From Lewinella sp. 4G2 (lineage in GTDB: Bacteria; Bacteroidota; Bacteroidia; Chitinophagales; Saprospiraceae): a stretch of DNA of 64,000 nucleotides. Made by a program: the position numbers and the translations under genes. Positions 39,088-61,184 of the stretch are shown piece after piece (position 1 is the stretch's first letter; each line of letters starts with the position of its first letter). The notes beneath the pieces were generated by a model, which worked only from the letters and a program-made list of their open reading frames with translations, did not search any database and had not been told where the DNA came from. Location: assembly GCF_001625015.1 (NCBI RefSeq), contig NZ_LVWJ02000014.1:1054001-1118000 (forward strand), given 5' to 3'.

Positions 39088-41346
39088 CTAAAACCGTACC
39101 CGCCCAATAGCCCGTAGGAAAAAAGGTGCCCCCGGCGTAAAGTGAATCTCTTCCGTCGGTGAAGTCTCATTAAACAAACGGCTTTCCGTTGCAAACTGAG
39201 TTTCCTCCCACTCCGTATCCAGCAAGTTCTGCGCCTCCAACCCGATCGTGAAGGCACCGATCCGGTAATTAAGGTTGGCGTCAACGATGCCGTAACCCTT
39301 TGCTACGATGCTGTTGTCCTCGTTAGCGGGCCGGTCCGCCAGGTAACGGTAACGGAGCCCGGCGGTCCACTTATCGGACTTATAGCTCAGCCCGCCCGTG
39401 CTCGTAAAGGGAGGGGCCAGGGGGATGTAATCCTCCCCTTCCAATTCTTCGGTACTCCGGGCGAATGCGTAGTTCACGTCCAAATCGGCAAACAGACCTC
39501 TGGCCAACTGAGCGCGGACCCCGAAGTCAACTCCTAAACGGCGGGTCTCACCACTGGGCTCAACGATGCCGGCGTCACCGACGTAGACGAATTCCTGGTC
39601 GAGCAGCAGCGCCCAGAGTGCTGCGTTGACGATCACCCCCGGGGTGGGGCGGTAAATGAAACCAAGATCACCACCGTAGGCCGCCGGAAGGATGTCGTCC
39701 GCCGAATTATCCAGTACCACACGGGTATCATTGGAATGGAACCCAATCCCGGTCTTCAAAAATAATTGCAACTCATTATTAGCATTGTACATGAAATTCA
39801 GCTTGGGGCTGACGCGGCTCGCCGTCTGCTCCTGCCGGTCGTACAGCGTCGCCAGTCCGTCCACGTAGTTGAACTGGAAGTAGTCGAAGCGAAGGCCGGT
39901 ATTGATGAGTAAGTTGCCAAACTCCATCTCCCCGTTCACGTATCCAAAGAGGTTGCTCTCATCGATGTCTCCCTGCTGGACGAAACTGCGCTCCGTCGTA
40001 CGGTTAATCGTATTGGCCAAGCCGTTATCATCGCTATTGTCGTAGCGTAAGCCGACGCCGGACTTGATCAACAACTCCCGATCAGCCACGTAAACGGCTT
40101 TGTTCAGTTCCGTGGACAAGCCAAAAATATCCCGCTCCTCCCGCTGGCGAATCTGATCACCGTTGACGGGGTCCTCCAGGAAGAAAGTAAAGTTGGAGAA
40201 CAGCTCGAAATCGTACCGGGAGTAGAATGCGGACGTTTTCACAAAAGTGTTTCGGTCCACCACCTTGTTGTAATTGACGGCAACGTTCGTCCGGCTGGTG
40301 TACCCACCCTCCGTATCGTCGATGGCTCCGAAGCGGCCAATCAGACCACTTTCAACGGCACGAACCGGGATCTGCCCCGAGGCATCCCACTTACTCGTGA
40401 AGTGGCTGGCCAGCAGGGAAACCTTACTCTTGTCACGAAGTACGCCCGTGTATTTGCCCATCACGTTGAAGCGACTGAAGTGCTGGGAAGAATCGAAGGG
40501 GCCATCCGTCAGGGTATACGCCGTCGCCAAGTAGGCATTATGGTTATCACTGGAAAGCACGTCGATTAGGCTCGTCAAACGCCGGGTGTTGAAGCTACCG
40601 TACTCGATTCCGGCGCTGCTGGATTCAAGGCGTTCTTTTAGCGCGAAGTTGACGTATCCGGCCGTGTTGAAATTACCTACGTCCGCGTAGTAGGGACCCT
40701 TACCGAAATCAATTTTCTCAATGGTTTCGGGGATGATGAAGTGAAGGTCCGCATAGCCCTGCCCGTGGGCGTGGCTTACCATGTTCACGGGAAGGCCATC
40801 CACCGAGATGGCGACGTCCGTACCGTGGTCCACGTCAAAGCCCCGCAGAAAGATCTGCTCGGCCTTGCCTCCGCCGGCGTGTTGGCCAATGACCAGACCC
40901 GGGACGGAGCGAAGCACCTCCTGGGCGGAAGCTACCGGCCGTACCGCCAGGTCAATACTGGTAATAACGTTGAGGGCCTCAACACCGGGGCGGATAACTA
41001 CCTCGTTCAGGTTAAAGCTCCCTTCCCGCATCCGGATCTCGATCTCTACGGGCTGGTTGGGTACCAATACAGTTTGGGTAAGGTAACCTAGGTAGGATAT
41101 CATGATACTATCGCCGGCATCTACCTCATCGAGGGTGAAATAACCCAGCTCATTGGTGTGTGCGTGGTGCTCATGCCCGACGTGAATGACGTAGGCACCG
41201 ATTACGGGCCGGCTGGCTTCGTCTACGACCCGACCGTTGAGGCGGTCTACCGGGTGGTTATGATCGTGGCCAGCATGGCTTTGCGCATTTAGCGTAGCGG
41301 TGAACGCTAAAGACAGGAGGAGGATAAGGCGGGAAAAGGATCTCAT
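39088..41346 (-). CDS. TonB-dependent receptor with His-rich N-terminus, linked to the NRPS arm
   Basis: 752 residues with a signal peptide (TLNAQ). A His-rich stretch (SHAGHDHNHPVD) and a carboxypeptidase-regulatory-like domain (about 30-115) follow, the latter with a second His patch (GHEHHAHTNE). Next are the plug (SVPGLVIGQHAGGGKAEQ, SHAHGQGYADLHFIIPE) and a 22-strand barrel. Such receptors import large or metal-bound ligands across the outer membrane. It lies 51 bp downstream of the NRPS gene on the same strand, so it probably takes up (or is inhibited by) the cluster product. The histidines suggest a metal link. Confidence 0.9.
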   Translation of the reverse strand: MRSFSRLILLLSLAFTATLNAQSHAGHDHNHPVDRLNGRVVDEASRPVIGAYVIHVGHEHHAHTNELGYFTLDEVDAGDSIMISYLGYLTQTVLVPNQPVEIEIRMREGSFNLNEVVIRPGVEALNVITSIDLAVRPVASAQEVLRSVPGLVIGQHAGGGKAEQIFLRGFDVDHGTDVAISVDGLPVNMVSHAHGQGYADLHFIIPETIEKIDFGKGPYYADVGNFNTAGYVNFALKERLESSSAGIEYGSFNTRRLTSLIDVLSSDNHNAYLATAYTLTDGPFDSSQHFSRFNVMGKYTGVLRDKSKVSLLASHFTSKWDASGQIPVRAVESGLIGRFGAIDDTEGGYTSRTNVAVNYNKVVDRNTFVKTSAFYSRYDFELFSNFTFFLEDPVNGDQIRQREERDIFGLSTELNKAVYVADRELLIKSGVGLRYDNSDDNGLANTINRTTERSFVQQGDIDESNLFGYVNGEMEFGNLLINTGLRFDYFQFNYVDGLATLYDRQEQTASRVSPKLNFMYNANNELQLFLKTGIGFHSNDTRVVLDNSADDILPAAYGGDLGFIYRPTPGVIVNAALWALLLDQEFVYVGDAGIVEPSGETRRLGVDFGVRAQLARGLFADLDVNYAFARSTEELEGEDYIPLAPPFTSTGGLSYKSDKWTAGLRYRYLADRPANEDNSIVAKGYGIVDANLNYRIGAFTIGLEAQNLLDTEWEETQFATESRLFNETSPTEEIHFTPGAPFFLRAIGRVRF

Positions 41347-41397: not shown

Positions 41398-44300
41398 TTA
41401 TTCGTCCACTTCCATCTCAGCGAGTAAGGCTTCAATGGTGCTTTCCAGATAAATAGCTTGTTCTTTTATGGTTGGGTGGCTGAAGACTACCGGTATGGGC
41501 ACTTCCAATTCGAAAGTGTCCTGAATGCGGGCCGCTAACCGGATGGCCGTCAGGGAGTGTCCGCCCAGGTCCAGGAATTTTTCGGTAGCGCTGATTTGTT
41601 CCAAATTGAGCACGTCTCCCCAGATCTCGGCCAGCATTTCTTCAAATTCTCCCTCCGGGGCAACGTAGGTGGCGACGGCCACTTCACCGCGGATCTCTTC
41701 CGCGGCCAACAAGGCCTTACGGTCTACCTTCCCGTTGGGAGTCAGGGGCATGGAAGGGATGGCCACAAAATGGCTGGGCAGAGAATAATCCGGAAGCCGT
41801 TCGGCTAGGTACCGCCGCAGTTCATCGGCCGAGACGCCATCTTCCGCAGTGTAGTACGCGACGAGATGGCGGTTCTCCAGGTTCTCCTGGGCGTTCGAAT
41901 AGCCAATCTCCCGCATCATGCGTTTGACTTCCCGCTCGTCAACCTCTTCGTTGATCTCTTCGAGGGCCGCATTCCGTTGCTTGTGGCCGACGCGGACGTC
42001 CCAGCTGTAGGGAAAGGCGTAGTTGTTGTACCCCTTCTCCTTTTTGTGGACGTAAATTCCTAACTGGTTGATCAAGCAGTTGGTAGAACGGCCGGTGTCC
42101 GTTGGCCGGTCCCAGGGCAGACGCTCGTCGAGGTCCCTGAGCATCTCGTCCAGCGTAACGTCGGTATAGCGGTAAAAATCGATGAACTGAACGCGGTCAA
42201 AAACGGCGGCGTCGTCAAACATGGATGTATCCAGTAGTTGCTTGACGGCGTCGTCCGCCTGGTGATAGACTTTGCGGGCTTCCAGAATGGCAGCGTCAAT
42301 GTCTTTGCCGGAGTTACCATTCAAAAAGAGTTCCTCTGTCAACCGGGTCTCGAAGAACTGGCCGCGGGAAAGCCCCGTCACGATGTACGGGATGTTTTTT
42401 TCCAGCGCTAACTGAGTACTTAAAGTATAGATCGTTTTGAAGCAACCGTTGCAAACGTTACAGTGGCGGTGCAGGCTATCCGTGAAGATGGCGTTCATCG
42501 CCGGAGTGCTCCCGACGTGGCAATCCACACCGAGCGCAGCAGCTACCCGCCGCACGTTCGCCAGGGCCTGCTGGCTGATGTATCCGTTATCCAGCGTGAA
42601 GGCCAGCACCTTGAGGCCCATTTGTACGAGTTGCCCCAGGGCGTAAGTACTGTCCTTACCACCGCTCAGGAGCATGATACAGTCGTACTCCGCTGCGCCT
42701 GCACTGGGCTGGGGGGTAAACAATTGCCGAAGGTCCTCCTTGGTGCGGAAATAGTGCTGCACCTGTTTTTGGTAGTCCTCAAAACCCAGGCAGAGTTGAC
42801 AAACTCCCGCTTCATCAAAGACGGCACTGGGGTAGTTGGCCGGTAGCCCGCATTTTGTACAGTAGTGGGCTTCCTTCCGCATCCCCGTCTGCCGGGCGTC
42901 TACCATTTCTACGGCGACGTTACTGACAGCGGGGTGAGTGGCCAGCGCGGCTTCTACTTCGTTAAGCTCGATCCGGAAACCCCGCCATTTTACCTGGCGG
43001 TCCGCCCGGCCGAGAAAGACCAGGTCACCATTGCGGTGGCGGCGGGCGACGTCTCCCGTTCGGTACAAACGCTCGCCCGGCACACCGGCATAGTGCACGA
43101 AGCGTTCGGCCGTTCGTTCGGCATCTCCGTAGTATGCTTTGGCTAAGCCACTTCCCCCCAGGTACAATTCACCACTTACGCCGGGAGGACTTGGGTGGCC
43201 GTATTCATCCAGGATAACGGCAAACGTGCCGGGAATGGCACGGCCGATCGGCACGGATGGCTGGGGCGGCGCTCCAATATCGAACTGATGGACGATGCAG
43301 CCCACGGTAGCTTCCGTCGGCCCGTATTCATTATAGATCTTCACGCCGGCCGGGAAGGTTTGGGCAGTTTCCACGGCCAGGCCCCAACGGAAGTTTTCGC
43401 CCCCAACAATCAGGGTGGAAACGAGTGCCTCGGGGTACTGCCGCCCACTCAGCAAGGCCAAGTGGCTCGGTGTTAGTTTGATGACGTCGCTCCGGTTATC
43501 GTCCAGCACCCTGAATAAGGCCAGATCCGGTTGCCCCGCGGGCGGCTCCTCGTAGATGAGGACGTGCCCCCCGCAAGTCAGCGGCGTAAACAGAGAGGTG
43601 ACCGTCAGGTCAAAACCAATCATCGTAAACAGTGGGAAGGCCGGGGCCGGCACTGTAACGTAAGTCTCCCGGGCGTAGGCCACGTAATTCGCCAGCGCTC
43701 CGTGGCTGATCACCACTCCTTTTGGCGTTCCGGTGGAGCCGGAGGTGAACATGACGTAAGCCGGGTCAGTAGCTTTTACGGCGGGTAAATCAGTGGTCGG
43801 CCTGGTGGCACTCACTAGCCCCCAATCCGTGTCGAGTTGGAGAGTCGGGACACCAACTCCGGCTGTTACCTCCGTTAAGGATGCGACGGTCAGAACGAAG
43901 CGAGCTTCTCCCTGCTCCAATAGCGTAGTTCCTCTTTGCGCTGGCGTAGATGCCGGCACCGGGAGGTAAGCCAGACCAGCCTTCCAGCATCCGAACAAGG
44001 CGACGAACAACTCCGGCCCCCGCGGCAAATGAACGGCCACGTTTCCGCCGTTTACCCGCCCCCGTAGGAAATGGGCCAACTGCTCACTCTGCCGCTCCAA
44101 ATCTCCGTAGGACAATTCCCCACCCGCAAAGTCCAGGGCCAGCGTCTCCGGATGGGATAGCGCACGGGACGAAAATAAATCCGGAACCAAACCCGGCGCC
44201 TCCGTGCGTATTGGTCCTGCTTCCATTGCGGAGCCGTCGGCTAGCGGTACTGCTGCGATCGTTCGGGAAGGATCCTCCAGAAAGGCATCCAGCAACGCCA

Positions 44301-45528
44301 GGATCTCCGTGGCTACGTGGTCACCACCATCGGGGAAAATGTCCGCATTCAGGTCCAGTTCTAACCGTAGTCCGTCTCCGTTCCCGAAGTCGTAGGCCTG
44401 GACGCGTACCTGGTGGGCGGCGTCCGCGTGGCCCGGGTGGATCCATTCCGTCCGGGCACTGATGTCTTCGGTAAAGTCCCCAAACTTGACGTGGATGTAA
44501 TTCAGGATTACTCCCACCGAACGCAGCAAATCGGGGGTGACGAGACCGGGGCGGGCCTCCGCCAGGAAGGCGTTCGTCTGCGTCCGGACGGTCTCCAATA
44601 AGGAGAGAAAATTCCGCCCCGGTGTTACTTCCACGGTTAGGGGAAGCACTTCAATGAAGCAGCCGGGTGTATCCTGGCTCTTTCGGTTCGTCCGGTTATG
44701 GGCGGGTGTCCCGATGGTGAGGGTTTGCTCCTCGACCACCCGGCTCAGGTAGGCGAAAACCAGGGTAGCCAGTACGTTAAACAGGGTCAGGTCCCGTGTC
44801 CAGTGTTTGATGTTTGCTTGAGTGAGGAGGGCTTCCAGCTTTTGCTGGCGTTCCGCACCGAGTAACACAGTCGTGCGATTTGAGGCCGTTACTGTTTGTT
44901 GGGGCCTACGTCCGTACAGCGTTGGTTTACCAGGGTTAGGCTGCTCCGCCCAGTAACTGGATGGTTCTTGCTGAGCGCGTGTCCGTTCCCGTTCCAGGTA
45001 GCCTCCGTAGGAGGGGGGGCTGGTCTTATTTACTTGCCCACCTAACCCGGCACCTGCGGCAGCGCCCAGATAGAATTCGCGCAGCAGCCGGTACTGCACC
45101 GAAATACCCCAGGCGTCCGTAATGAGATGGTGCTGGTTCAGGAAGAAAATATGTTCCTCCTCACTCACCTTAATTACGGCAGCATCGTAAGCGTAGCGGT
45201 CCAGGGGGAAAACGGTTTGAGTACGGGCCCGGAGGTAGTCCTCAAGGTTCCCATCGATATCCTCAGCGCGCAAGATGGCTAACTGCCGGGGCGCAGTAGG
45301 TAAAACGCGTTGCTGAGGTCGTCCGTCTACGGTAGTGAAAACGGTACGCATGGCGTCACTAGCCGCGCAGAGTTGATTGAAGGCTCCGTTGAACCGCGCG
45401 ACATCGAGCGGCCCACGCAGGTGAAAAGCGAAGGCCATATTGTACAGCGGTTGGCCCCAGGCCAATTGTTGGCCGGCCCAGAGGACTTGCTGCCCCTTCG
45501 TTAGCTCCTGGTACCCTGCTCCCTTCAT
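41398..45528 (-). CDS. NRPS: C-A-PCP, with a PP-loop ATPase domain inserted in the A domain
   Basis: 1376 residues. Condensation domain at 1-430 with NQHHLITDAWG (His133-134). Adenylation core at 455-880: YVMFTSGSTGTPKG at 591-604, NEYGPTEAT, LYRTGD, GRADRQVKWRGFRIE. Its specificity residues read D-L-T-K-I-G-E-V-G, one change from the textbook Asn code. An AANH/PP-loop domain (about 882-1215) is inserted after motif A8. The A domain then ends (NGKVDRKAL at 1265-1273), followed by a PCP with LGGHS (Ser1325). It overlaps the carrier-protein gene by three bases (ATGA). It should condense the pyrrolyl starter with Asn and modify it. Confidence 0.95.
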   Translation of the reverse strand: MKGAGYQELTKGQQVLWAGQQLAWGQPLYNMAFAFHLRGPLDVARFNGAFNQLCAASDAMRTVFTTVDGRPQQRVLPTAPRQLAILRAEDIDGNLEDYLRARTQTVFPLDRYAYDAAVIKVSEEEHIFFLNQHHLITDAWGISVQYRLLREFYLGAAAGAGLGGQVNKTSPPSYGGYLERERTRAQQEPSSYWAEQPNPGKPTLYGRRPQQTVTASNRTTVLLGAERQQKLEALLTQANIKHWTRDLTLFNVLATLVFAYLSRVVEEQTLTIGTPAHNRTNRKSQDTPGCFIEVLPLTVEVTPGRNFLSLLETVRTQTNAFLAEARPGLVTPDLLRSVGVILNYIHVKFGDFTEDISARTEWIHPGHADAAHQVRVQAYDFGNGDGLRLELDLNADIFPDGGDHVATEILALLDAFLEDPSRTIAAVPLADGSAMEAGPIRTEAPGLVPDLFSSRALSHPETLALDFAGGELSYGDLERQSEQLAHFLRGRVNGGNVAVHLPRGPELFVALFGCWKAGLAYLPVPASTPAQRGTTLLEQGEARFVLTVASLTEVTAGVGVPTLQLDTDWGLVSATRPTTDLPAVKATDPAYVMFTSGSTGTPKGVVISHGALANYVAYARETYVTVPAPAFPLFTMIGFDLTVTSLFTPLTCGGHVLIYEEPPAGQPDLALFRVLDDNRSDVIKLTPSHLALLSGRQYPEALVSTLIVGGENFRWGLAVETAQTFPAGVKIYNEYGPTEATVGCIVHQFDIGAPPQPSVPIGRAIPGTFAVILDEYGHPSPPGVSGELYLGGSGLAKAYYGDAERTAERFVHYAGVPGERLYRTGDVARRHRNGDLVFLGRADRQVKWRGFRIELNEVEAALATHPAVSNVAVEMVDARQTGMRKEAHYCTKCGLPANYPSAVFDEAGVCQLCLGFEDYQKQVQHYFRTKEDLRQLFTPQPSAGAAEYDCIMLLSGGKDSTYALGQLVQMGLKVLAFTLDNGYISQQALANVRRVAAALGVDCHVGSTPAMNAIFTDSLHRHCNVCNGCFKTIYTLSTQLALEKNIPYIVTGLSRGQFFETRLTEELFLNGNSGKDIDAAILEARKVYHQADDAVKQLLDTSMFDDAAVFDRVQFIDFYRYTDVTLDEMLRDLDERLPWDRPTDTGRSTNCLINQLGIYVHKKEKGYNNYAFPYSWDVRVGHKQRNAALEEINEEVDEREVKRMMREIGYSNAQENLENRHLVAYYTAEDGVSADELRRYLAERLPDYSLPSHFVAIPSMPLTPNGKVDRKALLAAEEIRGEVAVATYVAPEGEFEEMLAEIWGDVLNLEQISATEKFLDLGGHSLTAIRLAARIQDTFELEVPIPVVFSHPTIKEQAIYLESTIEALLAEMEVDE
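41883..42885 (-). other. PP-loop (AANH) domain inserted between A8 and A10 of the adenylation domain
   Basis: Residues about 882-1215 of the NRPS. A zinc knuckle CTKC (Cys890, Cys893) with CQLC (Cys910, Cys913) precedes SGGKDS (955-960), the pyrophosphatase loop. CNVCNGC (Cys1023, 1026, 1029) and TGLSRGQFFETRL follow. This layout fits the PseA/WbpG (N-acetyl-sugar amidotransferase) and thiolation branches of the AANH superfamily, which adenylate a carbonyl oxygen and replace it with N or S. The flanks are continuous A-domain sequence, so this is a true insertion within one polypeptide, not a fusion at an end. Confidence 0.9.
45050..45067 (-). repeat. 18-bp dispersed repeat, one mismatch, inside the NRPS C domain
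   Basis: GCACCTGCGGCAGCGCCC on the plus strand. It is read in the gene as G-A-A-A-G-A at residues 155-160, in the loop after the HHxxxD helix of the condensation domain. Confidence 0.85.
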
Positions 45529-45773
45529 CGTGCCGCGCTGCGCTGATTCTCGACGTAGCGGCTGATGGCGGCTACGGAAATAAAGTTATCGATGATCATA
45601 TCACCGGGAGGTACCTTGAAACCGTAGGTTTTCTCAATAAAGTTGATGACGCGGAAGATGCCCATGGAACTGACGAGGCCACTCCCCAGAAGGTCGTCCT
45701 CAACGTCAAGGTCGTAACCGGGTTCTTCGCCCAGTACTTCGGTGATCAGGTATTGTAAAATGTCTTCTTGCAT
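45525..45773 (-). CDS. stand-alone peptidyl carrier protein of the pyrrole cassette
   Basis: The start chosen is ATG 45773 (MQEDILQYLI); upstream codons lie inside the adenylation gene. 82 residues. Carrier-protein helix pattern with LLGSGLVSSMGIF. The second Ser of the pair (Ser36) occupies the phosphopantetheine position, but the usual preceding Asp is replaced by Ser. It starts one base after the adenylation gene stop and its own stop overlaps the NRPS ATG. By analogy with PltL/RedO it would hold prolyl and then pyrrolyl-2-carboxyl thioester. Confidence 0.88.
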   Translation of the reverse strand: MQEDILQYLITEVLGEEPGYDLDVEDDLLGSGLVSSMGIFRVINFIEKTYGFKVPPGDMIIDNFISVAAISRYVENQRSAAR

Positions 45774-45774
45774 A

Positions 45775-47343
45775 TCAGGAAGGCTGTAATGGGGAATAGC
45801 TGCTCTCAAGTTGCCGGCGATCGATCTTGCCCCCCGGGGTGCGGGGGAGCGCCCCATAGGGTAGGATCTCCTGGGGCACGGCAAAGGCCGGTAGCCGGGC
45901 AGAAAAGTAGGATAAGAGTTTGGGGGCGGGTTTTCGGTCCGATACGTGCACGGCTAAAATCAGCCTTTTCGTACCGCTAGTATCGGCCACCGCGAAGGTG
46001 GCGGATTCGACGACGGCGGGGTGGTTATTGGCTACCATTTCCACCTCGTCGAGTTCCACCCGGTAGCCCCGGATCTTCACTTGCCGGTCCCGCCGGCCCA
46101 GTAAGTGTAAGGTGCCGTCAGTATCGCGGCGGGCCAGGTCGCCCGTCCGGTAGTAGGTCTCAAAAAAGCCGGGGTAACGTTCAACTTTGAGGAAGGCACG
46201 CGCCGTCAGATCCGGCCGCTTCCAGTAGCCCGCCATGGTGGTTGCGGAGCGGACCAGAAGCTCGCCAGTTTCGCCCGGAGGAACTTCTTTGCCAGTTTCG
46301 TTTGTCAGGATCACGTGCGTGTTGGCCCAGGCCTTCCCAATGGGTACGGCACCGGTAAAACTTAACTCTCCGGTGATATCGTAGGTCGTGCAGACGTTCG
46401 TTTCGGCCGGGCCGTAATGGTTACTGAAGGTAGCGCGGGGCAGGAGGCCGATCAGTTGGCGCAAGTACTCCGGCGCCAGGGCTTCGCCGGCCCAAACCAC
46501 GAGGCGGAGGGCGGTCAGGTCCAGGTCCGCCAGTGTGTTCGTCAGGAGCATTTGCTGAAGTGCGAGGGGTACGGAGTACCAGACGGAGACCTTTTCTGCA
46601 GCCATCATGGCAGCCATCGAGGCGGGTAGGCGCACGTGGGCGTCGGTGGCAAGGGCAATCGTCGCACCCGTTAGCGGCCCGCAGAAGTAAGCGAGCGTAC
46701 ACATGTCGAAGTGCAGCGCGCAGTGGTTACCGAGCACGTCGTTCTCCGTGATCTTGTAGTTATCCCGAATCAATTTCGCGTAGGCCAAACCACTCCGGTG
46801 CGTGTGCATGATGCCCTTAGGCGTGCCGGTAGAGCCAGAAGTAGTAAGAATATACGCCAGGTCGTCCGCCAGTATATTCGGAGTCTGAGGCGCTGACGCA
46901 GGTGCGAGGTTCAGGTCGTCCGGGCCGAGCGTAGGCACGGGGAGGTCCCCAGCAAACCCCAGGACCAACCGCAACGGGGAGGGCTCCGTAAACAGCTCCG
47001 GAAGGCGGCGGCGTTGTTGCCGATTGGTGATCAGCACGGCCACGTCGCACTCATTGAGCAAGGTGATCGTGCGGGCCGCCGGTGAAAAGGGATCAAGGGG
47101 TAAGTAGACCGCGCCGACGAGCAGTACGCCGTAAACGGCCGCTACGCTTTCCAGGCAGCGGGGCAGGTAGATCCCCACCCGGTCACCTTTCTTGACGCCC
47201 TTGGCTAAAAGCGTATTCGCCAGTCGATTGGCCGCCACCAGTAACTCCGCAAAAGTCTGGAATTGGCCACCACACTGTACCGCCACTTTACTGGGCAAGC
47301 GCCGGGCGGTCTCAACGAGGGATTGGTGGAGCAGGAAGGGCAT
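45775..47343 (-). CDS. stand-alone adenylation enzyme, probable L-prolyl-AMP ligase (PltF/RedM-like)
   Basis: 522 residues, a complete A domain without C or PCP. Core motifs: YILTTSGSTGTPKG, NHYGPAETN, YYRTGDLARR, GRRDRQVKIRGYRVE and PGGKIDRRQL. The specificity residues I read are D-M-L-Y-V-A-H-V-C, close to the D-L-L-Y-L-A-L-V-C type of pyrrole-forming prolyl ligases. Its start directly abuts the dehydrogenase stop, and the carrier protein follows. The trio of ligase, carrier and flavin dehydrogenase is the established route from proline to pyrrole-2-carboxyl thioester. Confidence 0.88.
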   Translation of the reverse strand: MPFLLHQSLVETARRLPSKVAVQCGGQFQTFAELLVAANRLANTLLAKGVKKGDRVGIYLPRCLESVAAVYGVLLVGAVYLPLDPFSPAARTITLLNECDVAVLITNRQQRRRLPELFTEPSPLRLVLGFAGDLPVPTLGPDDLNLAPASAPQTPNILADDLAYILTTSGSTGTPKGIMHTHRSGLAYAKLIRDNYKITENDVLGNHCALHFDMCTLAYFCGPLTGATIALATDAHVRLPASMAAMMAAEKVSVWYSVPLALQQMLLTNTLADLDLTALRLVVWAGEALAPEYLRQLIGLLPRATFSNHYGPAETNVCTTYDITGELSFTGAVPIGKAWANTHVILTNETGKEVPPGETGELLVRSATTMAGYWKRPDLTARAFLKVERYPGFFETYYRTGDLARRDTDGTLHLLGRRDRQVKIRGYRVELDEVEMVANNHPAVVESATFAVADTSGTKRLILAVHVSDRKPAPKLLSYFSARLPAFAVPQEILPYGALPRTPGGKIDRRQLESSYSPLQPS

Positions 47344-48495
47344 CTAAAGTCCGGTCAGTTGTGCAATAATGTTCCGCTGGATGTCCGAAGTACCCGCGTA
47401 GATGATGCCGCCAATGGCGTCCCGAAGATCCCGTTCCACTTCTGTTTCCGCCAGATAACCGTTACCACCACGAATGCGGATGGCGTCGAGGCTCGAAGCG
47501 ACGAAGCTTTCACTGAGGTAAAGCTTGAGCATGGAGGATTCTAGGAGAGCGGGTTCATCCGCCTGTTTTTTGTCGGCCAGGTTGTACAAGAGTAGGCGGG
47601 CGGTCTCGAGCCGTAGTTTCATGTCCGCAATCCGGTTGGATACGGACTGGAATTGCCCGATCGGCTGGCCGAATTGCTTCCGCTGCCGGGCGTAGGCAAC
47701 GCTCTCCTCCAGCTGCCGGGCCATGGCACCGAGGTTAGAGGCCAGGATGCCGCAACGGTCGTACTCCAGGGAGTGATTGCCGATGCTGAAGCCGGCCCCC
47801 TCTGCCCCCAGACGGTTGGCGGTGGGGACGAAACAGTCCGTCAACTCAATCGAACCGAAGGGAACGCTGCGCAGGCCCATCTTGTGTTCATTGGGCCCCG
47901 CCTTGAAGCCAGGAAAGGTTTTTTCAACTAGGAAGGCCGTGATGCCCCATTTCCCCATTTTGGGGCGGGCGTTGGCGAAGATGAGCACCACATCCGCTTC
48001 GGGGCCGAGTGTGATGTAGCGTTTGGTACCGTTCAGTATGTATCCGCCCTCCGTAGGGGTGGCCGTCATCTGCATGGAATAAACGTCCGAGCCCGCTTCC
48101 GCTTCCGTAAGAGCGTGGGCACCGATCCATTCCCCGCTGCACATGGGGGGGAGGAAGCGTTCCTTCTGGGCTTCCGTCCCGAAGGTGTTAATGGGGAGCA
48201 TGACCGTCCACAACTGGGCATTGAGGCCGAGGGCAAGTCCGTTATCCCGGGAGCCGTACCCGAATCCTTCCATAGCCCGGACGGCGCGGGGGATGTCCAC
48301 ACCTTCAACCTCGCCACCGTAGCGGGCGGGGGTAGACAAGCCGAGGAGGCCAAAATCGGCGCAGGCGCTCCATACTTCCCGAGAGAAACTGGATTCGGCG
48401 TCGCGTTGGCGGGCTCCAGTGCTGAGTTGCTCCAAGGCGAAGGCGGCCACTTTATTGCGGTAGCCCTCCGTAGAAGTGTGCGTGGAGGTAGACAT
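47344..48495 (-). CDS. acyl-CoA-dehydrogenase-like flavoprotein, probable prolyl-S-PCP dehydrogenase (PltE/RedW-like)
   Basis: 383 residues with the full ACAD fold: helical N-terminus, the HALTEAEAGSDVYSM FAD/substrate strand, RKQFGQPIGQFQSV and the C-terminal GGIIYAGTSDIQRNI. Straight-chain acyl-CoA dehydrogenases carry the base Glu in IYEGT; here Ala stands in that place. An acidic residue in SLEYDRCG could serve instead, as in isovaleryl-CoA dehydrogenase. First gene of the minus-strand arm and directly abuts the prolyl ligase gene. Expected to oxidise carrier-bound proline to pyrrole. Confidence 0.88.
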   Translation of the reverse strand: MSTSTHTSTEGYRNKVAAFALEQLSTGARQRDAESSFSREVWSACADFGLLGLSTPARYGGEVEGVDIPRAVRAMEGFGYGSRDNGLALGLNAQLWTVMLPINTFGTEAQKERFLPPMCSGEWIGAHALTEAEAGSDVYSMQMTATPTEGGYILNGTKRYITLGPEADVVLIFANARPKMGKWGITAFLVEKTFPGFKAGPNEHKMGLRSVPFGSIELTDCFVPTANRLGAEGAGFSIGNHSLEYDRCGILASNLGAMARQLEESVAYARQRKQFGQPIGQFQSVSNRIADMKLRLETARLLLYNLADKKQADEPALLESSMLKLYLSESFVASSLDAIRIRGGNGYLAETEVERDLRDAIGGIIYAGTSDIQRNIIAQLTGL

Positions 48496-49123: not shown

Positions 49124-50917
49124 TTGACTTACATCCAACGGTTAAAATGCATACTGACGACCGGGGAGCGCCGCCGTTTAGGCTGGTTAACGGTTGGGGT
49201 ATTATTTATGGCCTTTTTCGAAGTAGTGGGCGTCGGCGCGATCCTTCCCTTCATGAAAATCGTGGCCACGCCGGAGAACACTGCCGGAAGCGTATGGGTG
49301 AAGGGTCTACAACACTTAACGGGTGCGTCCGACCACGGAGATCTCGTGGTCTGGTCCGCCATCCTCGTTTTTGGCTTATTGCTACTGGGCAACTTGTGCC
49401 GGGGCGTTGTGGGGTATTTACAACAGAAGATCGGGTGGTCCATCTCAGCGGCCCTGAGCAGCCGGTTACTGAAGGCTTACCTCTCCCGCGGGTATGATTT
49501 TTACCTGACCAAAAATTCCTCGGAACTCAAGGTGAGCTTACTCTCGGAGGTTAATAAGTTTACTACGGGGGTGCTGATTCCCCTACTTTCCCTCATTTCG
49601 AAGGGTACGCTGGTCGTAGTGATTGCGGCCTTGCTGTTTTACGTAGATCCACTCTTGTCGTTCGTTTCGGTCCTCGTTCTGGGCGGATTATTCTTACTCA
49701 TCTACTGGTGGCGGCGAAGGGCACTCAGCAAACTGGGGGAGAAGCGGGTGGAATCCAATGTTCGGCGGTACGGATCCCTCATCGAGTTGTTTAGTGGCAT
49801 CAAAACCTTCATGGTCTACGGTGTGGAAGGTTTCTTCTACCAGCGTTTCAGCCGGGCTGCCCACGACTTTTCGGAGGTACAACCCAGCATGTTCGTGATC
49901 TCCCAAACGCCGCGGCTAGGCATGGAGGTGCTACTCTTTGGTGGGCTATTAGGAATGACAACCTATTTATACTTCAGCCTGGGGGATATTTCGGAAGCCC
50001 TGCCCATCCTCTCGCTTTACGCGCTGGCCGGCGTAAAACTTCTCCCCTCCCTGCAGGCGGTCTACGTAGCTGCGACTTCGCTACGCCACCACGCCAATAC
50101 GGTTGATGCGCTGTACGCAGATTTCCACCACCCACAGAACGGATCGGCGATCGTGGTAACGGAGGAGCTCGCCCCGCAGCGCTTACAATCCTCAATTGCG
50201 TTGGAGGGGCTCAGTTTTTCTTACGAGAATAGCGATTCTCCGGCGCTGCGGGACATCAACCTGAAAATTGAAAAGGGAACGACGGTAGCCTTCGTCGGTT
50301 CCACTGGCTCCGGGAAGTCGACCATGGCGGATATCCTCGTCGGGCTGCTCCGGCCGTCCGCGGGTTTTCTCTTACTGGACGGCGTGGCCTTAACACCGGA
50401 GGACACCCCCGCCTGGCAAAAGGGGATCGCTTACGTCCCCCAGGATGTAGTCCTTTTCGATGATACCGTACTCCATAACATCGCCATTGGCGAGGCTACG
50501 GATTCCATTGATCGGGAACGGGCTTACGCCGCCGCCCGGGTAGCCAATATTCATACTTTCATCACGGATGAGCTCGCGCAAGGTTACGCTACGAAGGTTG
50601 GCGAGCGGGGTGCCCGCATAAGCGGCGGGCAGAAGCAAAGGATCGGCCTCGCTCGCGCGCTGTATCGCCGACCGGAGGTACTCGTCCTGGACGAAGCGAC
50701 CAGCGCCCTTGATAACGTGACCGAGCAAGCCGTGTTAACCTCCCTCGCCGGTAGTGACCGCCAACTGACAACGATCGTGATTGCCCACCGGCTGGCGACC
50801 ATCCGCCACGCGGACTGTATTTATTTGCTGGACCACGGAGAGTTGGTCGGGCAGGGAACCTACCAGGAATTAGTCGACACCAACGCTGACTTCCGGGAGA
50901 TGGCCCGCTTAAACTAA
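49124..50917 (+). CDS. ABC exporter (fused permease and ATPase)
   Basis: 597 residues starting at TTG 49124; the next in-frame Met lies inside the first membrane helix. Six membrane helices (about 18-315) are followed by an ATPase domain: Walker A GSTGSGKST, Q-loop YVPQDVVLFD, signature ISGGQKQRIG, Walker B VLVLDEATSALD and H-loop IVIAHRLATI. MsbA/peptide-exporter type half-transporter acting as a homodimer. First gene of the plus-strand NRPS arm, hence probable exporter of the product. Confidence 0.93.
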   Translation: MTYIQRLKCILTTGERRRLGWLTVGVLFMAFFEVVGVGAILPFMKIVATPENTAGSVWVKGLQHLTGASDHGDLVVWSAILVFGLLLLGNLCRGVVGYLQQKIGWSISAALSSRLLKAYLSRGYDFYLTKNSSELKVSLLSEVNKFTTGVLIPLLSLISKGTLVVVIAALLFYVDPLLSFVSVLVLGGLFLLIYWWRRRALSKLGEKRVESNVRRYGSLIELFSGIKTFMVYGVEGFFYQRFSRAAHDFSEVQPSMFVISQTPRLGMEVLLFGGLLGMTTYLYFSLGDISEALPILSLYALAGVKLLPSLQAVYVAATSLRHHANTVDALYADFHHPQNGSAIVVTEELAPQRLQSSIALEGLSFSYENSDSPALRDINLKIEKGTTVAFVGSTGSGKSTMADILVGLLRPSAGFLLLDGVALTPEDTPAWQKGIAYVPQDVVLFDDTVLHNIAIGEATDSIDRERAYAAARVANIHTFITDELAQGYATKVGERGARISGGQKQRIGLARALYRRPEVLVLDEATSALDNVTEQAVLTSLAGSDRQLTTIVIAHRLATIRHADCIYLLDHGELVGQGTYQELVDTNADFREMARLN

Positions 50918-50971: not shown

Positions 50972-52210
50972 ATGACTACACCACAACCATTCAAAACTTT
51001 GCTCAGACTGACCTTAATCGGCGTCATATGCCTGCTGGGTTTTCAAAAACTGGCGGCTCACAAGGCGGACGAGAGCTACGTTTTTCTTAAGATCTACAAT
51101 GACCACATTGACGGTCATTACCAAATCACCGCCGGGGACCTCAACCTCGCCCTGGGCCTCAACTTGACGGATGATCTCGACGAGGCGCAAATTCAACCCT
51201 ACCTGCCGCGCATCCACCAGTACCTAAAGGAAAATTGTTACTTCAAGTCTGCCGCCGGAGACCACCCTATGACCTTCACCACGGTATCCTTCATGCCGGT
51301 GAGTTACGGCACTTTCGTGAACCTGGATTTCAAACTGGCGAATACCGAAGTGATCCCCGATGAGTTGGAGGTGAAGTTTGACATCATTTACGATAAGAAA
51401 CCCCGCCACCGGAATAAACTCATCCAGGCCTATAACTGGAAGGCGGGCATCACGAAAAATGAGGCCATGATCAGCCTCGCGTTCTCTCCCGGCAACGGGG
51501 TGCAGACGTTGGACCTCACCTCCCGCTCCGTCCTTAAGGGCTTTTGGGGGATGATCGTTAGCGGTATGTACCACATCTACATTGGGCTGGATCACATCCT
51601 GTTCCTACTGGCGCTGCTGCTGCCGGCCGTCGTCCGCCGTAAGAAGGGAGCTACGGGTATTTTGAATTCCTGGGAACCGGTGGAGGAGTTTCGCCCGGCC
51701 TTCATGTACGTACTGAAGATCGTGACCTTCTTCACCATCGCGCATACCATCACCTTGAGTTTAGCGGCCTTGGATGTGGTCAGCCTACCCAGCCGGATTG
51801 TGGAATCACTCATCGCGCTTTCCATTGCGTTGGCGGCCATCCATAACATCAAGCCCTTCCGGGAAAATGAGACGGTGGGCATCGCATTTGTTTTTGGCCT
51901 GTTTCACGGGTTTGGCTTCGCCAGTGTACTGGGGGAGGTGGGCCTGAGTGGTGAGTTCATGGTTCTTTCCCTCCTCGGGTTCAACATCGGAGTTGAACTG
52001 GCCCAGGTGATCATCATCTGCCTGGCCTTTCCTGCGCTGTTCTTTTTGAGGAAGAGCAAGTATTACAAGCCAGTCATCCTCATTGGTGGATCCATCTTCC
52101 TGATCGCCATCGCCTGTTACTGGTTCATCGAGCGCTTCTTTGAGGTGGACCTCGTTATTGGCGGCTATGTGGAGCGGGCCATTAAGAAAGTGAAAAGAAT
52201 ATTCAGCTAA
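50972..52210 (+). CDS. HupE/UreJ-like membrane protein within the NRPS operon
   Basis: 412 residues. A signal-type N-terminus is followed by an extracytoplasmic domain (about 30-185) and about seven membrane helices with the family motif GMYHIYIGLDHILFLLAL and the helix GLFHGFGFASVLGEVGL containing a conserved His. HupE/UreJ relatives are implicated in nickel, cobalt or copper handling. It lies between exporter and NRPS genes (54 bp and 4 bp spacing), so it is part of the cluster. This is a hint that the product concerns metal. Confidence 0.85.
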   Translation: MTTPQPFKTLLRLTLIGVICLLGFQKLAAHKADESYVFLKIYNDHIDGHYQITAGDLNLALGLNLTDDLDEAQIQPYLPRIHQYLKENCYFKSAAGDHPMTFTTVSFMPVSYGTFVNLDFKLANTEVIPDELEVKFDIIYDKKPRHRNKLIQAYNWKAGITKNEAMISLAFSPGNGVQTLDLTSRSVLKGFWGMIVSGMYHIYIGLDHILFLLALLLPAVVRRKKGATGILNSWEPVEEFRPAFMYVLKIVTFFTIAHTITLSLAALDVVSLPSRIVESLIALSIALAAIHNIKPFRENETVGIAFVFGLFHGFGFASVLGEVGLSGEFMVLSLLGFNIGVELAQVIIICLAFPALFFLRKSKYYKPVILIGGSIFLIAIACYWFIERFFEVDLVIGGYVERAIKKVKRIFS

Positions 52211-52214
52211 GCCA

Positions 52215-55200
52215 ATGAGTAAACCTTCCGCACTACAGCGCTGGCTAAAGCGTAAGCAGGCCCCGGAGAAACCGGAGCCCGGCCCGGTACGTAGCCAGGG
52301 GGTGGAAGAGAACGCCTCTTTCCCACTTACCGCTACTCAACACCGGCTGTGGGTGCTGAGTACACTTAATCCAGAGAGCTCTTTTTATCACTACGCCGAA
52401 ACCTATGGGCTAACGGGGAACGTCGATCCGGTTAAACTGAGGGCAGCCTTTCGGGCGGTAGTGAGCCGGCACGCCATTCTCAGGGCGACCTTTCACGGTG
52501 GGGCCGATGGTCCGTACCAGAAAGTTGGGGCGGCGCCAGAGTTTGAATTTACGGAAGAAGACCTACGGGGCGTGAAGGCGGAATCGAGACCCGCTGCCCT
52601 GCAAGACCGCTGTCACAAAATCGCCAATCGCCCATTCGATCTAACGCAAGGCCCACTACTTCGCGTAGCCCTTTTGCGGATGGCCGACACGGAATGGACC
52701 CTGTTACTGGTTCTGCACCACATCGTATTTGACTTTTGGTCGTTGGCCATTCTGCGGCGGGAACTCACCCTGGCTTACCGGGGGGAAATTTTGCCACCAC
52801 TCCAACTTCAATACCCGGAGCTGGGCCTCAATCGGAAGCCCACCAAGGAAAGTGATCTGGCCTGGTGGAAGGAGCAACTACGAGGTTTACCTCCGGCCCT
52901 GAACCTGCCTACCGACCGACCGAGACCGGCGTCCCCAAGCTACCGGGGCGCATACGCATACGGGACAATCCACGCAGCAGATGCAGCCGCTATTCGGCGG
53001 GCAGCCCGTGGCCAGGGGGTAACCTTATATACCTACTTACTGGCTGCTTACCAGGTGCTGCTCGCTCGATTCAGCGGTACCGAGGACTTCGCCATTGGAG
53101 CCCCGGTCACCACTCGGGATAGACAGGAACTCGAGGAGTTGATCGGTTTTTTCGATCAAACCTTGACCCTGCGGTCTTCCTTAACGGACGGAATTAGTTT
53201 TCGGCAATTAGTCGAGCGGGTGAAGGCATCTACGACGGAAGCTTTTCTCCGCAAATCCGTTCCTTTCGAGGAGGTGGTGCAGGCCATTAATCCACCACGG
53301 TTACCGGGGGCTAATCCTTTGTTCCAACACATGCTGGTGCTAAAGCAAGCTGCCCCGGACGAACACATCAACGCTGAACTGGAACTTCACGCCCGGCCCT
53401 TCGATGCGGGGATCGCAAGGTTTGACCAAACCCTATTCGTTGCTGATACGGGTCAAGAACTGGAGATACTACTGGAATACGCCACGGATCTGTTCGACGC
53501 CGACACCATCCAACGCTACGTAGCCCACTTCATCACCCTGCTGCAAGAAGTGACGTTGAAACCGGATGCCCCTCTGGAAACCATCCGTACTACCCCGGAG
53601 GCTGAATACCAGCAACTCACCGAAACCTGGAACGCTACCTGCGAGCCACTGCCGGCGGGAGCCACTATCACATCACTGATCGCTGAACACGTCGAATCCG
53701 CTCACACTGCCGTCAGCGCAGGAAACGGCCAGCTCACCTACCGCGAACTCAAAGTGGCGGCAGATCGATTGAGCCGGCAGCTTGACCAGTCGACTGATCG
53801 TGACGAGGAGATCATTGGCCTTTACCTTGGCCCGGTTACGGAAATGGCCGTGGCGCTCCTCGCTACCTTACAGTCCGGCTACGCCTACCTGCCACTGGAC
53901 CCGAGCTACCCAGCGGACCGTATCAACTATTTGATCGAAGATTCTGGCGTCCGTACCATCCTGACGACCCCAGCCTTTGCCGCCGCACTCGAACTTCCCG
54001 CGGGTATTCGAGTGCTCCACGTCGGCGATAACGATGCTAAGGTTCAGGAATCGACCTCCAGTACTAGCCAAATTCCTACCCGTCGCGGAGCAGGCCAAGG
54101 CCCGCGCCCGGAAGACCTGGCCTACGTCATTTATACTTCCGGAAGTACCGGGAAGCCAAAAGGCGTCCCCGTCACCCACGCTAATCTCGTCCACTCGACT
54201 CTGGCGCGGCGGAGCGTTTATCCGAGCCAGCCCACGGCCTTCCTGTTGCTATCCTCCTTCAGCTTCGATAGCTCCGTTGCGGGCATCTTCTGGGCGTTGA
54301 CGTCGGGGGCGAAACTTGTCCTGGCGCCACGCCGGATCGAGCAAGACCTCGATGCGCTGGCGAGCCTCATCGCTAATGAGGCCGTTAGCCACACGCTGAT
54401 GTTGCCTACGCTTTACGAGACCGTTTTGCGCTTTTCTGATGCGGAGGAATTAGGAAGCTTACGAACCGTAATTGTGGCCGGTGAGGCCTGTACGGCTAAG
54501 TTGGTCAAGCATCACTTCGCCACGCTACCCTCGGCGGAGCTATTTAATGAATATGGGCCCACCGAAGCTACGGTATGGTGTACGGCGCACCAGATTCTAC
54601 CCGAAGATGCGACCGGAGCCATCCCCATCGGCCGGCCGATCCCTAATGCTACGGCTTACGTCATGGCTAAGGGTGGCCGGGCGCTCGCTCCACTCGGCGT
54701 TCCCGGAGAATTATACATTGGTGGTGCCGGAGTGACCGCCGGATACCGGGGCCGGCCGGAACTGACGGCAGAGAAATTTGTCGCCAGTCCATTCGGCAAA
54801 GAGGAGCGGCTCTACCGAACGGGAGATCTGGCCCGGCATGGAAAAGATGGCCAGCTCTACTTTCTCGGACGGGTGGACCGGCAGATCAAACTGCGCGGCT
54901 ACCGGATCGAACTGGGGGAAGTTCGGGAAGCCCTCCTTTTTCTCCCGGGCGTAACGGAAGCGGCGGTACGCGTAGATCAGGAGCGGCAAAGATTGCTCGG
55001 CTACGTCGCGGGCGTTCCGGTTACGGCGCTCCCCAATTTGCGGCGGTCGTTACTGGAACGGATGCCCAAACACCTCGTCCCGGCGGCCCTCCACGCCGTG
55101 GATGTCTTCCCACAGTTAGTCAACGGAAAGATTGATGTGGCCAGTCTACCCTTAACGTTGTCCGGGCAAAATCGAATTGAAAGTGATACGGACCAAACGG

Positions 55201-60525: not shown

Positions 60526-61184
60526 TGACTGAGGTACGCTACGTACATAACCGGGAAGAATTATCCTCCACCGCCTTTCGTAAGCTGGAAGCCCTGTTGC
60601 CGCCCATCTTCCACGGTTCATTTGCGCGGTATCGCCGCTGGCAGGACCGGCAGGCTGGCCTATTCGGAAAATTATTAGTGCGGCAACTGCTGAAGGAAGT
60701 CCTCGGGCAGCCGGAATTACTGGCGACGATGACCGTTGATGATCACGCCCGGCCATCACTGGCTTTTGGGGGTGATTTTAATATCTCGCACACCAATGGG
60801 CTCATCGTTGCCGCCCTGAGTACTACTCAACGAATTGGTATCGACGTGGAGCGCCATCAGGAAGTTGATCCGGCAGAATTCGACCGAGTTTTTACCGTTC
60901 ACGAACAGCAGCGGATCCGCAGAAGTAAGCACCCACAGGCTACTTTCTACCAGACCTGGACGAGAAAGGAAGCCGCCATGAAAGCGGACGGCCGTGGCTT
61001 CTACCTCAACGCTGCGGATTACGAAACGGGAGAGGCCACTATCGCTATTGATGGAAACGACTGGGTATTAAGGGAGCTCCCCTTGCCGCGGGGGTATACC
61101 GGTCACCTTAGCGCACTTAACGTGACGGAGGTGAGGATAGAGGAGGTGAGTTTGCTTGAATTCTTGGCTTGGGGAACTGATTAG
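60525..61184 (+). CDS. Sfp-type 4'-phosphopantetheinyl transferase
   Basis: 219 residues. Conserved motifs: FNISHTNGLIVAAL, IGIDVERHQ (Mg-binding Asp and Glu) and FYQTWTRKEAAMKADG. It transfers phosphopantetheine from CoA to the carrier-protein serines of the cluster. Overlaps the glycosyltransferase stop (TAATG) and is the last gene of the plus arm. Confidence 0.95.
   Translation: MTEVRYVHNREELSSTAFRKLEALLPPIFHGSFARYRRWQDRQAGLFGKLLVRQLLKEVLGQPELLATMTVDDHARPSLAFGGDFNISHTNGLIVAALSTTQRIGIDVERHQEVDPAEFDRVFTVHEQQRIRRSKHPQATFYQTWTRKEAAMKADGRGFYLNAADYETGEATIAIDGNDWVLRELPLPRGYTGHLSALNVTEVRIEEVSLLEFLAWGTD

What the first reader, a model, noticed from the sequence alone, without database searches (positions are those of the whole stretch)
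41398..45528. Adenylation domain interrupted by a complete PP-loop (AANH) ATPase domain
Between motifs A8 and A10 of an otherwise normal A domain lie about 335 residues with zinc knuckles (CTKC, CQLC), SGGKDS and CNVCNGC. Interrupted A domains carrying methyltransferase, ketoreductase, oxidase or monooxygenase domains are established. I know of no described case with a PP-loop N/S-transferase. It implies that carbonyl-to-thiocarbonyl or amide-to-amidine chemistry is performed directly at the amino-acid activation station.
Basis: partly seen in the sequence, partly recalled or inferred. Interest (0 to 1): 0.95.

Follow-up and report, generated by a model that had tools for sequence, protein, structure and literature searches.

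The report
Asparagine-to-nitrile domain inside NRPS module
A peptide-building enzyme carries, inside the part whose signature marks it as asparagine-activating, an ATP-binding domain of an already described type (AMDH) that likely turns the asparagine into a nitrile; the same layout recurs in many bacteria, here in a gene cluster predicted to make a metal-binding compound.

Summary
In detail: window ORF 41398-45528 (-) is C-A-T with about 320-335 residues of PP-loop fold inserted between A8 and A10. It is no assembly error: the architecture recurs in many proteins and at loci of three phyla. The claim that no case is described is wrong. The insert is an AMDH (aminomutase/amide-dehydratase) domain, known from CysH (cystobactamid; PMC7966384) and AlbIV (albicidin): 48% identical to the Cystobacter Cbv34 protein over 324 residues, same insertion site, same code DLTKIGEVG. 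CysH turns carrier-bound Asn into beta-cyanoalanine, or supports isoasparagine after hydroxylation. So nitrile formation on the Asn side chain is the likely reaction, not thioamide or amidine. Two points go beyond what I read in that paper. First, a CxxC...C triad (C1026, C1029, C1151) is Cys in 351/351, 351/351 and 350/350 family members examined, in 0 of 21 N-acetyl sugar amidotransferases, and matches the [4Fe-4S] motif of PP-loop sulfur insertases; it could explain why CysH is brown. Second, in Bacteroidota, Cyanobacteria and Rhodobacterales the module sits in a conserved cluster (prolyl-carrier-type dehydrogenase, ligase, carrier, HupE-type permease, often a His-type module), predicted to make a metallophore.

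The parts
41398..45528 (-). NRPS1, 1376 aa: C - A(a1-a8) - AMDH - A(a9-a10) - PCP
44566..45510 (-). Condensation domain (residues 7-321; HHLITD at residue 133)
42889..44169 (-). Adenylation core a1-a8 (residues 454 to about 880)
   Evidence: AMP-binding 454-800; end of a8 read by eye
43300..43611 (-). Specificity-code residues between 640 and 743: DLTKIGEVG, Asn type
   Evidence: DLTKIGEVGK treated among Asn / beta-cyanoalanine codes in PMC12283262
41908..42867 (-). AMDH insert (residues 888-1207), PP-loop/HUP fold
   Evidence: WbuX 888-1207; fold; 48% to the Cystobacter Cbv34 protein
42790..42861 (-). Zinc-ribbon-type cysteines C890, C893, C910, C913
   Evidence: 12 of 12 inserts and 21 of 21 WbuX proteins
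42649..42666 (-). PP-loop SGGKDS (residues 955-960)
42442..42453 (-). C1026-x2-C1029, first part of the CxxC...C triad
42076..42078 (-). C1151, third cysteine of the triad
41728..41871 (-). A subdomain second half, a9-a10 (residues 1220-1267, K1267)
   Evidence: Lys in 19 of 19 rows
41446..41634 (-). Carrier protein domain (residues 1299-1361)
45525..45773 (-). Stand-alone carrier protein, 82 aa from the ATG at 45773
   Evidence: ORF; PP-binding 5.1e-05, over cut-off
45775..47343 (-). Stand-alone adenylating ligase, proline type likely
   Evidence: 6o6e and 7thn prolyl-carrier ligases among the hits, behind several general NRPS chains
47344..48495 (-). Acyl-CoA dehydrogenase, prolyl-carrier dehydrogenase type
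   Evidence: 4irn prolyl-ACP dehydrogenase 1.4e-113, next 8.5e-80; PigA/RedW models best, below cut-offs
49124..50917 (+). ABC exporter
50972..52210 (+). HupE/UreJ_2 membrane protein (metal permease family)
   Evidence: in 16 of 18 loci
52215..56771 (+). NRPS2: C-A-T plus a second condensation-type stretch; code DSALIAEVW (His type)
   Evidence: DSALIAEVWK given as a His code in PMC12283262
56768..59155 (+). NRPS3: C-T-TE
59155..60525 (+). Glycosyltransferase (EryCIII/UDPGT type)
60525..61184 (+). 4'-phosphopantetheinyl transferase
39088..41346 (-). TonB-dependent receptor with a His-rich N-terminus
   Evidence: within the held stretch in 6 of 18 loci

Best explanation
The insert is an AMDH domain, the described aminomutase/amide-dehydratase insert of asparagine-activating NRPS modules, and it would convert the asparagine held on this module's carrier into beta-cyanoalanine, a nitrile. 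Shown here: the architecture, the Asn-type code, 48% identity to the AMDH of the Cystobacter Cbv34 protein (taken as CysH by strain, size and layout), and conservation of the zinc-type cysteines, the PP-loop and a CxxC...C triad. Taken from PMC7966384: CysH-bound Asn loses water only when AMDH is present; with the hydroxylase CysJ the domain instead supports isoasparagine formation. Inferred: the PP-loop uses ATP to adenylate the side-chain carboxamide oxygen, and loss of AMP gives the nitrile; the triad holds a [4Fe-4S] cluster that would bind or polarise the amide; no CysJ-type hydroxylase was found in this cluster, so dehydration should prevail over isomerisation. Further inferred: the small carrier bears a dehydroproline or pyrrole-2-carboxyl unit made by ligase and dehydrogenase, the C domain joins it to the modified Asn, NRPS2 adds His, and the released peptide serves in metal uptake through the TonB receptor and the HupE-type permease.
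For: Homology and layout: (48.5% over 324 residues, E 1e-112; 41% over 939 residues for A-AMDH-T). Tree: 41 AMDH sequences do not mix with 21 WbuX. Same Asn code in the Cystobacter protein, identical in 104 of 113 long family members and changed only conservatively in the other 9, DLTK[IL]GEVG in 20 of 20 AMDH modules read by script at loci and the window. CysH chemistry. AlbIV precedent. Triad 351/351, 351/351, 350/350 against 0 of 21 WbuX, none of which has any CxxC after the PP-loop in the slice compared; motif defined as CXXC-C for [4Fe-4S] LarE; CysH dark brown. Nitrile synthetase ArtA among the best folds. Cluster conservation. His code. The genome's one TauD-family gene lies some 430 kb outside the window.
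Against: No activity was tested; the window's domain lies in a different branch from CysH, so the reaction could have shifted. The triad is shared with sulfur-inserting enzymes. PMC7966384 leaves the mechanism open; it found no CxxCxxxC motif and judged a radical mode unlikely, while allowing a metal cofactor. CysH is a stand-alone A-AMDH-T without a C domain. In Streptomyces (L049) the domain sits outside an A domain beside a non-Asn module, so its substrate need not always be Asn. The metallophore role rests on neighbours only; the TonB gene is in the held stretch of 6 of 18 loci, all Bacteroidota, and not in four other Saprospiraceae, six cyanobacterial or two Rhodobacterales loci. The dehydrogenase misses the curated cut-offs. 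The module is rare: 2 of 296 phylum genomes, own included.
Confidence: 0.65

Rival explanations
1. The domain acts mainly as the aminomutase of the AMDH pair and delivers isoasparagine (the amide swapped between alpha and beta positions) rather than a nitrile.
For: CysH AMDH supports isoasparagine formation, most efficiently after CysJ hydroxylation; some isoasparagine forms without CysJ.
Against: No hydroxylase of the TauD family among the cluster genes scanned; the only TauD match of the genome lies some 430 kb outside the window. In vitro CysH without CysJ gives the nitrile, though isomerisation cannot be seen by mass there.
Confidence: 0.2
2. The domain is a [4Fe-4S] sulfur insertase that makes a thioamide on the carrier-bound substrate, as CtaC does in closthioamide biosynthesis.
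For: CxxC...C triad as in CtaC (C154, C157, C284) and LarE; triad absent in 21 of 21 WbuX; fold close to LarE, NcsA and TtuA with [4Fe-4S].
Against: The triad is equally present in the Cystobacter protein, whose product is a nitrile or isoasparagine. No sulfur donor gene among the cluster genes scanned. LarE and TtuA models match far below cut-off.
Confidence: 0.08
3. The domain makes an amidine with ammonia, as the N-acetyl sugar amidotransferases WbuX/WbpG are thought to do.
For: Best-scoring PP-loop family among curated models is WbuX; zinc cysteines shared 21 of 21; nearest solved fold 8wex.
Against: Score 121 against a cut-off of 203.2; the two groups separate in the tree; no HisH/HisF ammonia partners among the cluster genes scanned, whereas the WbuX-type genes beside the module on L050 and L051 have both.
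Confidence: 0.03
4. Assembly or sequencing error joined two genes.
For: None found.
Against: Same fusion in 119 other listed proteins and at loci of Bacteroidota, Cyanobacteria and Alphaproteobacteria.
Confidence: 0.01

Closest known systems
AMDH domain of CysH (cystobactamid, Cystobacter Cbv34)
   Same: Insertion site after a8, Asn code DLTKIGEVG, zinc-type cysteines, SGGKDS, CxxC...C triad, 48% identity
   Different: CysH is a stand-alone A-AMDH-T with the hydroxylase CysJ and shuttling protein CysB; here C-A-AMDH-T in an operon with a Pro-type starter cassette and no such hydroxylase found
AlbIV (albicidin)
   Same: A domain with a 342-residue AANH insert proposed to turn Asn into beta-cyanoalanine (PMC12283262 passage); its domain is 69% identical to the CysH one (PMC7966384)
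   Different: Sequence not examined here by choice
N-acetyl sugar amidotransferases (WbuX, WbpG, LpNASAT 8wex)
   Same: PP-loop fold, zinc tetracysteine (PMC10607449, parts 1-2 of 4)
   Different: No CxxC...C triad (0 of 21), implicated in sugar amidation, genes with HisH/HisF in the two cases seen
[4Fe-4S] PP-loop sulfur insertases (LarE, TtuA, NcsA, CtaC)
   Same: PP-loop and CXXC-C motif
   Different: Insert sulfur; LarE and TtuA models match the insert far below their cut-offs
Nitrile synthetase ArtA (PDB 9lei, 9leh)
   Different: Separate protein; only the PDB title and the fold match were seen
Interrupted A domains with methyltransferase, oxidase or ketoreductase
   Same: Insertion between a8 and a9 (PMC11355689 passages)
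   Different: Other inserted chemistry

Membership tests
AMDH domain (CysH/AlbIV type) | Insert of about 38 kDa (342 aa) in an NRPS A domain | tested here: met
   Insert residues 888-1207 by profile, about 335 by eye, between a8 and a9-a10
AMDH domain (CysH/AlbIV type) | Asn-type code of the host A domain | tested here: met
   DLTKIGEVG in the window and in P0242
AMDH domain (CysH/AlbIV type) | SGGKD ATP motif | tested here: met
   SGGKDS 955-960
AMDH domain (CysH/AlbIV type) | Sequence homology to the CysH AMDH | tested here: met
   48.5% identity over 324 residues, E 1e-112; groups with it against WbuX
AMDH domain (CysH/AlbIV type) | Asn dehydration or isomerisation on the carrier | not testable with these tools
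   Needs the enzyme
N-acetyl sugar amidotransferase WbuX (TIGR03573) | Curated score cut-off | tested here: not met
   121 bits against 203.2
N-acetyl sugar amidotransferase WbuX (TIGR03573) | Zinc tetracysteine and PP-loop | tested here: met
[4Fe-4S] PP-loop sulfur insertases | CXXC-C triad | tested here: met
   C1026, C1029, C1151
[4Fe-4S] PP-loop sulfur insertases | Curated LarE / TtuA cut-offs | tested here: not met
   24.3 of 150 bits and 19.8 of 450 bits
[4Fe-4S] PP-loop sulfur insertases | Bound [4Fe-4S] cluster and sulfur transfer | not testable with these tools
   Needs spectroscopy and assay
Prolyl-carrier dehydrogenase (neighbour 47344-48495) | Curated RedW / PigA cut-offs | tested here: not met
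   354.6 of 650 and 359.6 of 500 bits; nearest solved relative by sequence is the prolyl-ACP dehydrogenase 4irn
Metallophore biosynthesis cluster | Metal chelation by the product | not testable with these tools
   Only neighbours: HupE-type permease, TonB receptor, His-type code

The most novel reading that the evidence does not exclude
AMDH domains are [4Fe-4S]-dependent PP-loop enzymes: the invariant CxxC...C triad carries an oxygen-labile cluster that, with ATP, drives dehydration or isomerisation of carrier-bound asparagine, which would explain the brown colour of CysH and its unexplained chemistry. In Bacteroidota, Cyanobacteria and Rhodobacterales this domain serves one ancient, undescribed family of nitrile-bearing (dehydroprolyl or pyrrolyl)-cyanoalanyl-histidine metallophores, recovered through a TonB receptor and a HupE-type permease.
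Probability: 0.3. Interest if true: 0.72.

Novelty: new member of a known kind. Interest (0 to 1): 0.42.

Why it matters
What remains open and is made directly testable is how AMDH works: PMC7966384 calls the mode of catalysis not yet described and found no CxxCxxxC motif, while the alignment here shows a conserved cysteine triad of the type that binds [4Fe-4S] in related PP-loop enzymes. The conserved cluster around it points to an unknown compound family shared by Bacteroidota, Cyanobacteria and Rhodobacterales, with a nitrile and a histidine as possible metal ligands.

Tried and rejected
Thioamide reading: I held it as the leading idea up, because of the CxxC...C triad and the CtaC paper. 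It was demoted when PMC12283262 and PMC7966384 showed that the same kind of insert on the same code makes beta-cyanoalanine.

Amidine reading from WbuX similarity: rejected on score, tree and absence of HisH/HisF partners in the cluster.

The A-AMDH-T model (pLDDT 79.0, pTM 0.57) was not used for claims on domain arrangement. The LarE model matched 0 of 99 class genomes at E 1e-30 and the TtuA model 4 of 60, all below cut-off; neither gave sequences worth aligning. The cyanobacterial metallophores lusichelin and fatuamide were checked as possible products; no thioamide, pyrrole, prolyl or asparagine term occurs in either text (passages only). The places of the code residues were set with the GrsA sequence as I recall it; the resulting strings were then found as Asn-type and His codes in PMC12283262.

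No term or 87 was AMDH. Seen as passages only: PMC11355689, PMC9283937, PMC12210259, PMC11877528, PMC4771312, PMC13185837, PMC11253843, PMC8097286.

Full report
WHAT IS THERE. The ORF 45528-41398 (-) encodes 1376 residues without an internal stop. Pfam finds Condensation 7-321, AMP-binding 454-800, the second half only of AMP-binding_C 1220-1267, PP-binding 1299-1361 and a QueC-type PP-loop at 950-1022. The NCBIfam model WbuX covers residues 888-1207 with E 2.1e-33, below its cut-off. By eye the insert lies in the loop between the last strand after a8 and the strand before a9; a8-a9 is the commonest site of interrupted A domains according to PMC11355689 (passages).

NOT AN ARTEFACT. A protein search scored on the insert, with candidates of 757-2408 residues, gave 2009 proteins at E<=1e-3 of 7995 scored; the 120 listed, the window's own included, all show AMP-binding. 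A scan of GTDB contigs gave 21 loci from Bacteroidota and Cyanobacteria, among them the isolates Neolewinella xylanilytica, Lewinella and Leptolyngbya. Plasmids of two Rhodobacterales hold it too, and a Streptomyces plasmid holds a divergent form that is not inside an A domain. It is patchy: 2 of 296 evenly drawn genomes of the window's phylum at E<=1e-40, the own genome being one.

WHAT IT IS. PMC12283262 (sections 12 and 16 and passages) treats DLTKIGEVGK among the Asn codes as compatible with beta-cyanoalanine and says that the activating domain of albicidin's AlbIV has a 342-residue insert probably of the AANH superfamily. PMC7966384 (abstract, parts 2 and 3 of 9, and passages) names this kind of insert AMDH in CysH: CysH-bound Asn becomes beta-cyanoalanine (-18) only if AMDH is present; with the hydroxylase CysJ, isoasparagine linkers form; deletion of the domain abolishes both linkers; homologous domains occur in numerous clusters of unknown products. 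The last protein search returned a 975-residue NRPS of Cystobacter sp. Cbv34 (P0242), the cystobactamid strain; that it is CysH is my identification from strain, size and layout. The window insert is 48.5% identical to it over 324 residues (E 1e-112), and A-AMDH-T as a whole 41% over 939. Its code is DLTKIGEVG as in the window. In a tree of 41 AMDH sequences and 21 WbuX the two do not mix (the root was placed between them, so this shows no more than that); CysH groups with Corallococcus, Sorangium, Rugamonas and Spartinivicinus, and the window with Bacteroidota and Cyanobacteria, in a group of 35 with support 0.88 that leaves the CysH group out. Membership in the AMDH family is therefore as firm as sequence can make it; the reaction in this strain is inferred.

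SUBSTRATE. The Asn code is identical in 104 of 113 long family members and changed only conservatively in the other 9. Of the AMDH modules that the script read (19 at loci and the window), 20 of 20 have DLTK[IL]GEVG; L050, not picked up by the script and read by eye, has DLTKVGEVG. The exception is L049 in Streptomyces, where AMDH is the N-terminal half of a separate AMDH-condensation protein beside an A-T protein with code DARHASLMT and an asnB gene.

THE CYSTEINE TRIAD. Aligned with 21 standalone WbuX proteins, the four zinc-type cysteines are shared by all (12 of 12 and 21 of 21), but C1026, C1029 and C1151 are Cys in 12 of 12 NRPS inserts and in none of the 21, and none of the 21 has a CxxC anywhere after the PP-loop in the slice compared; 13 of the 21 have an unrelated Cys at the column of R1179. 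Over the three protein lists, one record left out, C1026 is Cys in 351 of 351, C1029 in 351 of 351 and C1151 in 350 of 350 with one gap, the Cystobacter protein included; the lists are the best hits of searches, so they are not an even sample. CXXC plus a distant Cys is the [4Fe-4S] motif described for LarE (PMC9283937 passages), and CtaC uses C154, C157 and C284 (PMC6772006, parts 1 and 2 of 3). PMC7966384 reports that CysH is dark brown, which it takes as a sign of a metal, and that no CxxCxxxC motif was found, so that a radical mode is thought unlikely. A tri-Cys [4Fe-4S] site would reconcile these. This is a prediction: I could not measure distances and did no spectroscopy.

MECHANISM. Most likely: the A domain loads Asn on its own carrier (shown for CysH); the PP-loop adenylates the side-chain amide oxygen (inferred from the fold family); AMP leaves and the nitrile forms (product shown for CysH). 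The cluster would bind or polarise the amide (inferred). Because no TauD-type hydroxylase is among the cluster genes scanned and the genome's only TauD match lies some 430 kb outside the window, dehydration is favoured over isomerisation.

THE CLUSTER. Upstream on the same strand lie a small carrier protein, a ligase with prolyl-carrier ligases among its solved relatives and a dehydrogenase whose best solved relative by sequence is the prolyl-ACP dehydrogenase 4irn, 383.5 bits against 272.3 for the next, though it misses the curated cut-offs. On the other strand follow an ABC exporter, a HupE/UreJ_2 protein, NRPS2, C-T-TE, a glycosyltransferase and a phosphopantetheinyl transferase. Of 18 loci with at least 10 kb upstream of the insert held (16 from genome contigs, 2 plasmids; L049, the window itself and the shorter loci L006, L008, L014, L020, L021 and L023 not counted), 17 have the dehydrogenase, 17 the ligase, 18 the carrier, 16 HupE, 14 an ornithine cyclodeaminase homologue, 9 the glycosyltransferase and 6 the TonB receptor (L010 lacks dehydrogenase, ligase and HupE; L005 lacks HupE). 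The window itself has no cyclodeaminase gene among the cluster genes scanned. The next A domain has the code DSALIAEVW in the window, L009, L010, L011, L012 and L015 and, by eye, in L050; PMC12283262 gives DSALIAEVWK as a His code. HupE/UreJ proteins are described as nickel transporters (PMC4771312 passages). The TonB receptor has only weak similarity to the copper porin OprC (5.5e-6) and to B12 and colicin receptors (4e-7 and 1e-6). Together this suggests a metallophore; it is not shown.

AGAINST. The triad also fits a sulfur insertase; the window's branch is not CysH's; the only direct chemistry is from CysH; the product is unknown.

VERDICT. Observation confirmed, novelty claim refuted, function reassigned. 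New member of a known kind, with a testable cofactor prediction and a conserved cluster for which searches showed no description; none of those searches was specific to it.

Noticed in passing
L011:12805-19640; also L009, L010, L012, L015: The second A domain of these cyanobacterial clusters is split: one gene ends after a8 (C-A core), a later NRPS gene begins just before a9-a10 (A end-T-C), and genes for methyltransferase, glycosyltransferase, sulfotransferase or others lie between them. By eye the ends look like helical docking segments.
   Followed up: partly
L050:17418-25466, second A domain: The Rhodobacterales NRPS has a short extra segment at the same a8-a9 point of its second A domain, which resembles a fused remnant of the split seen in cyanobacteria (read by eye).
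   Followed up: no
L049:19932-22112: In Streptomyces sp. NBC_01216 an AMDH-type domain stands outside any A domain, fused to a condensation-type domain, next to an A-T protein and an asparagine synthase gene.
   Followed up: partly
window 18014-24283 (-): A 2089-residue RHS/YD-repeat-like protein (by eye) with a C-terminal HEFGHNTGADHS metallopeptidase-like motif; Pfam finds only DUF6443.
   Followed up: no
window 24397-25863 (-): Protein with a Peptidase_S74 endosialidase chaperone domain and a Por secretion tail.
   Followed up: no
G373, G370, G344, G386, G342: Several class relatives hold WbuX-like matches at E 1e-32 to 1e-37, below cut-off, in open frames of 604-690 residues, perhaps a further fused PP-loop subfamily.
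   Followed up: no
L050:1956-5304 and L051:1953-5301: An annotated N-acetyl sugar amidotransferase with HisF and HisH partners lies about 14 kb from the AMDH-bearing NRPS on both plasmids, a built-in contrast between the two families.
   Followed up: yes
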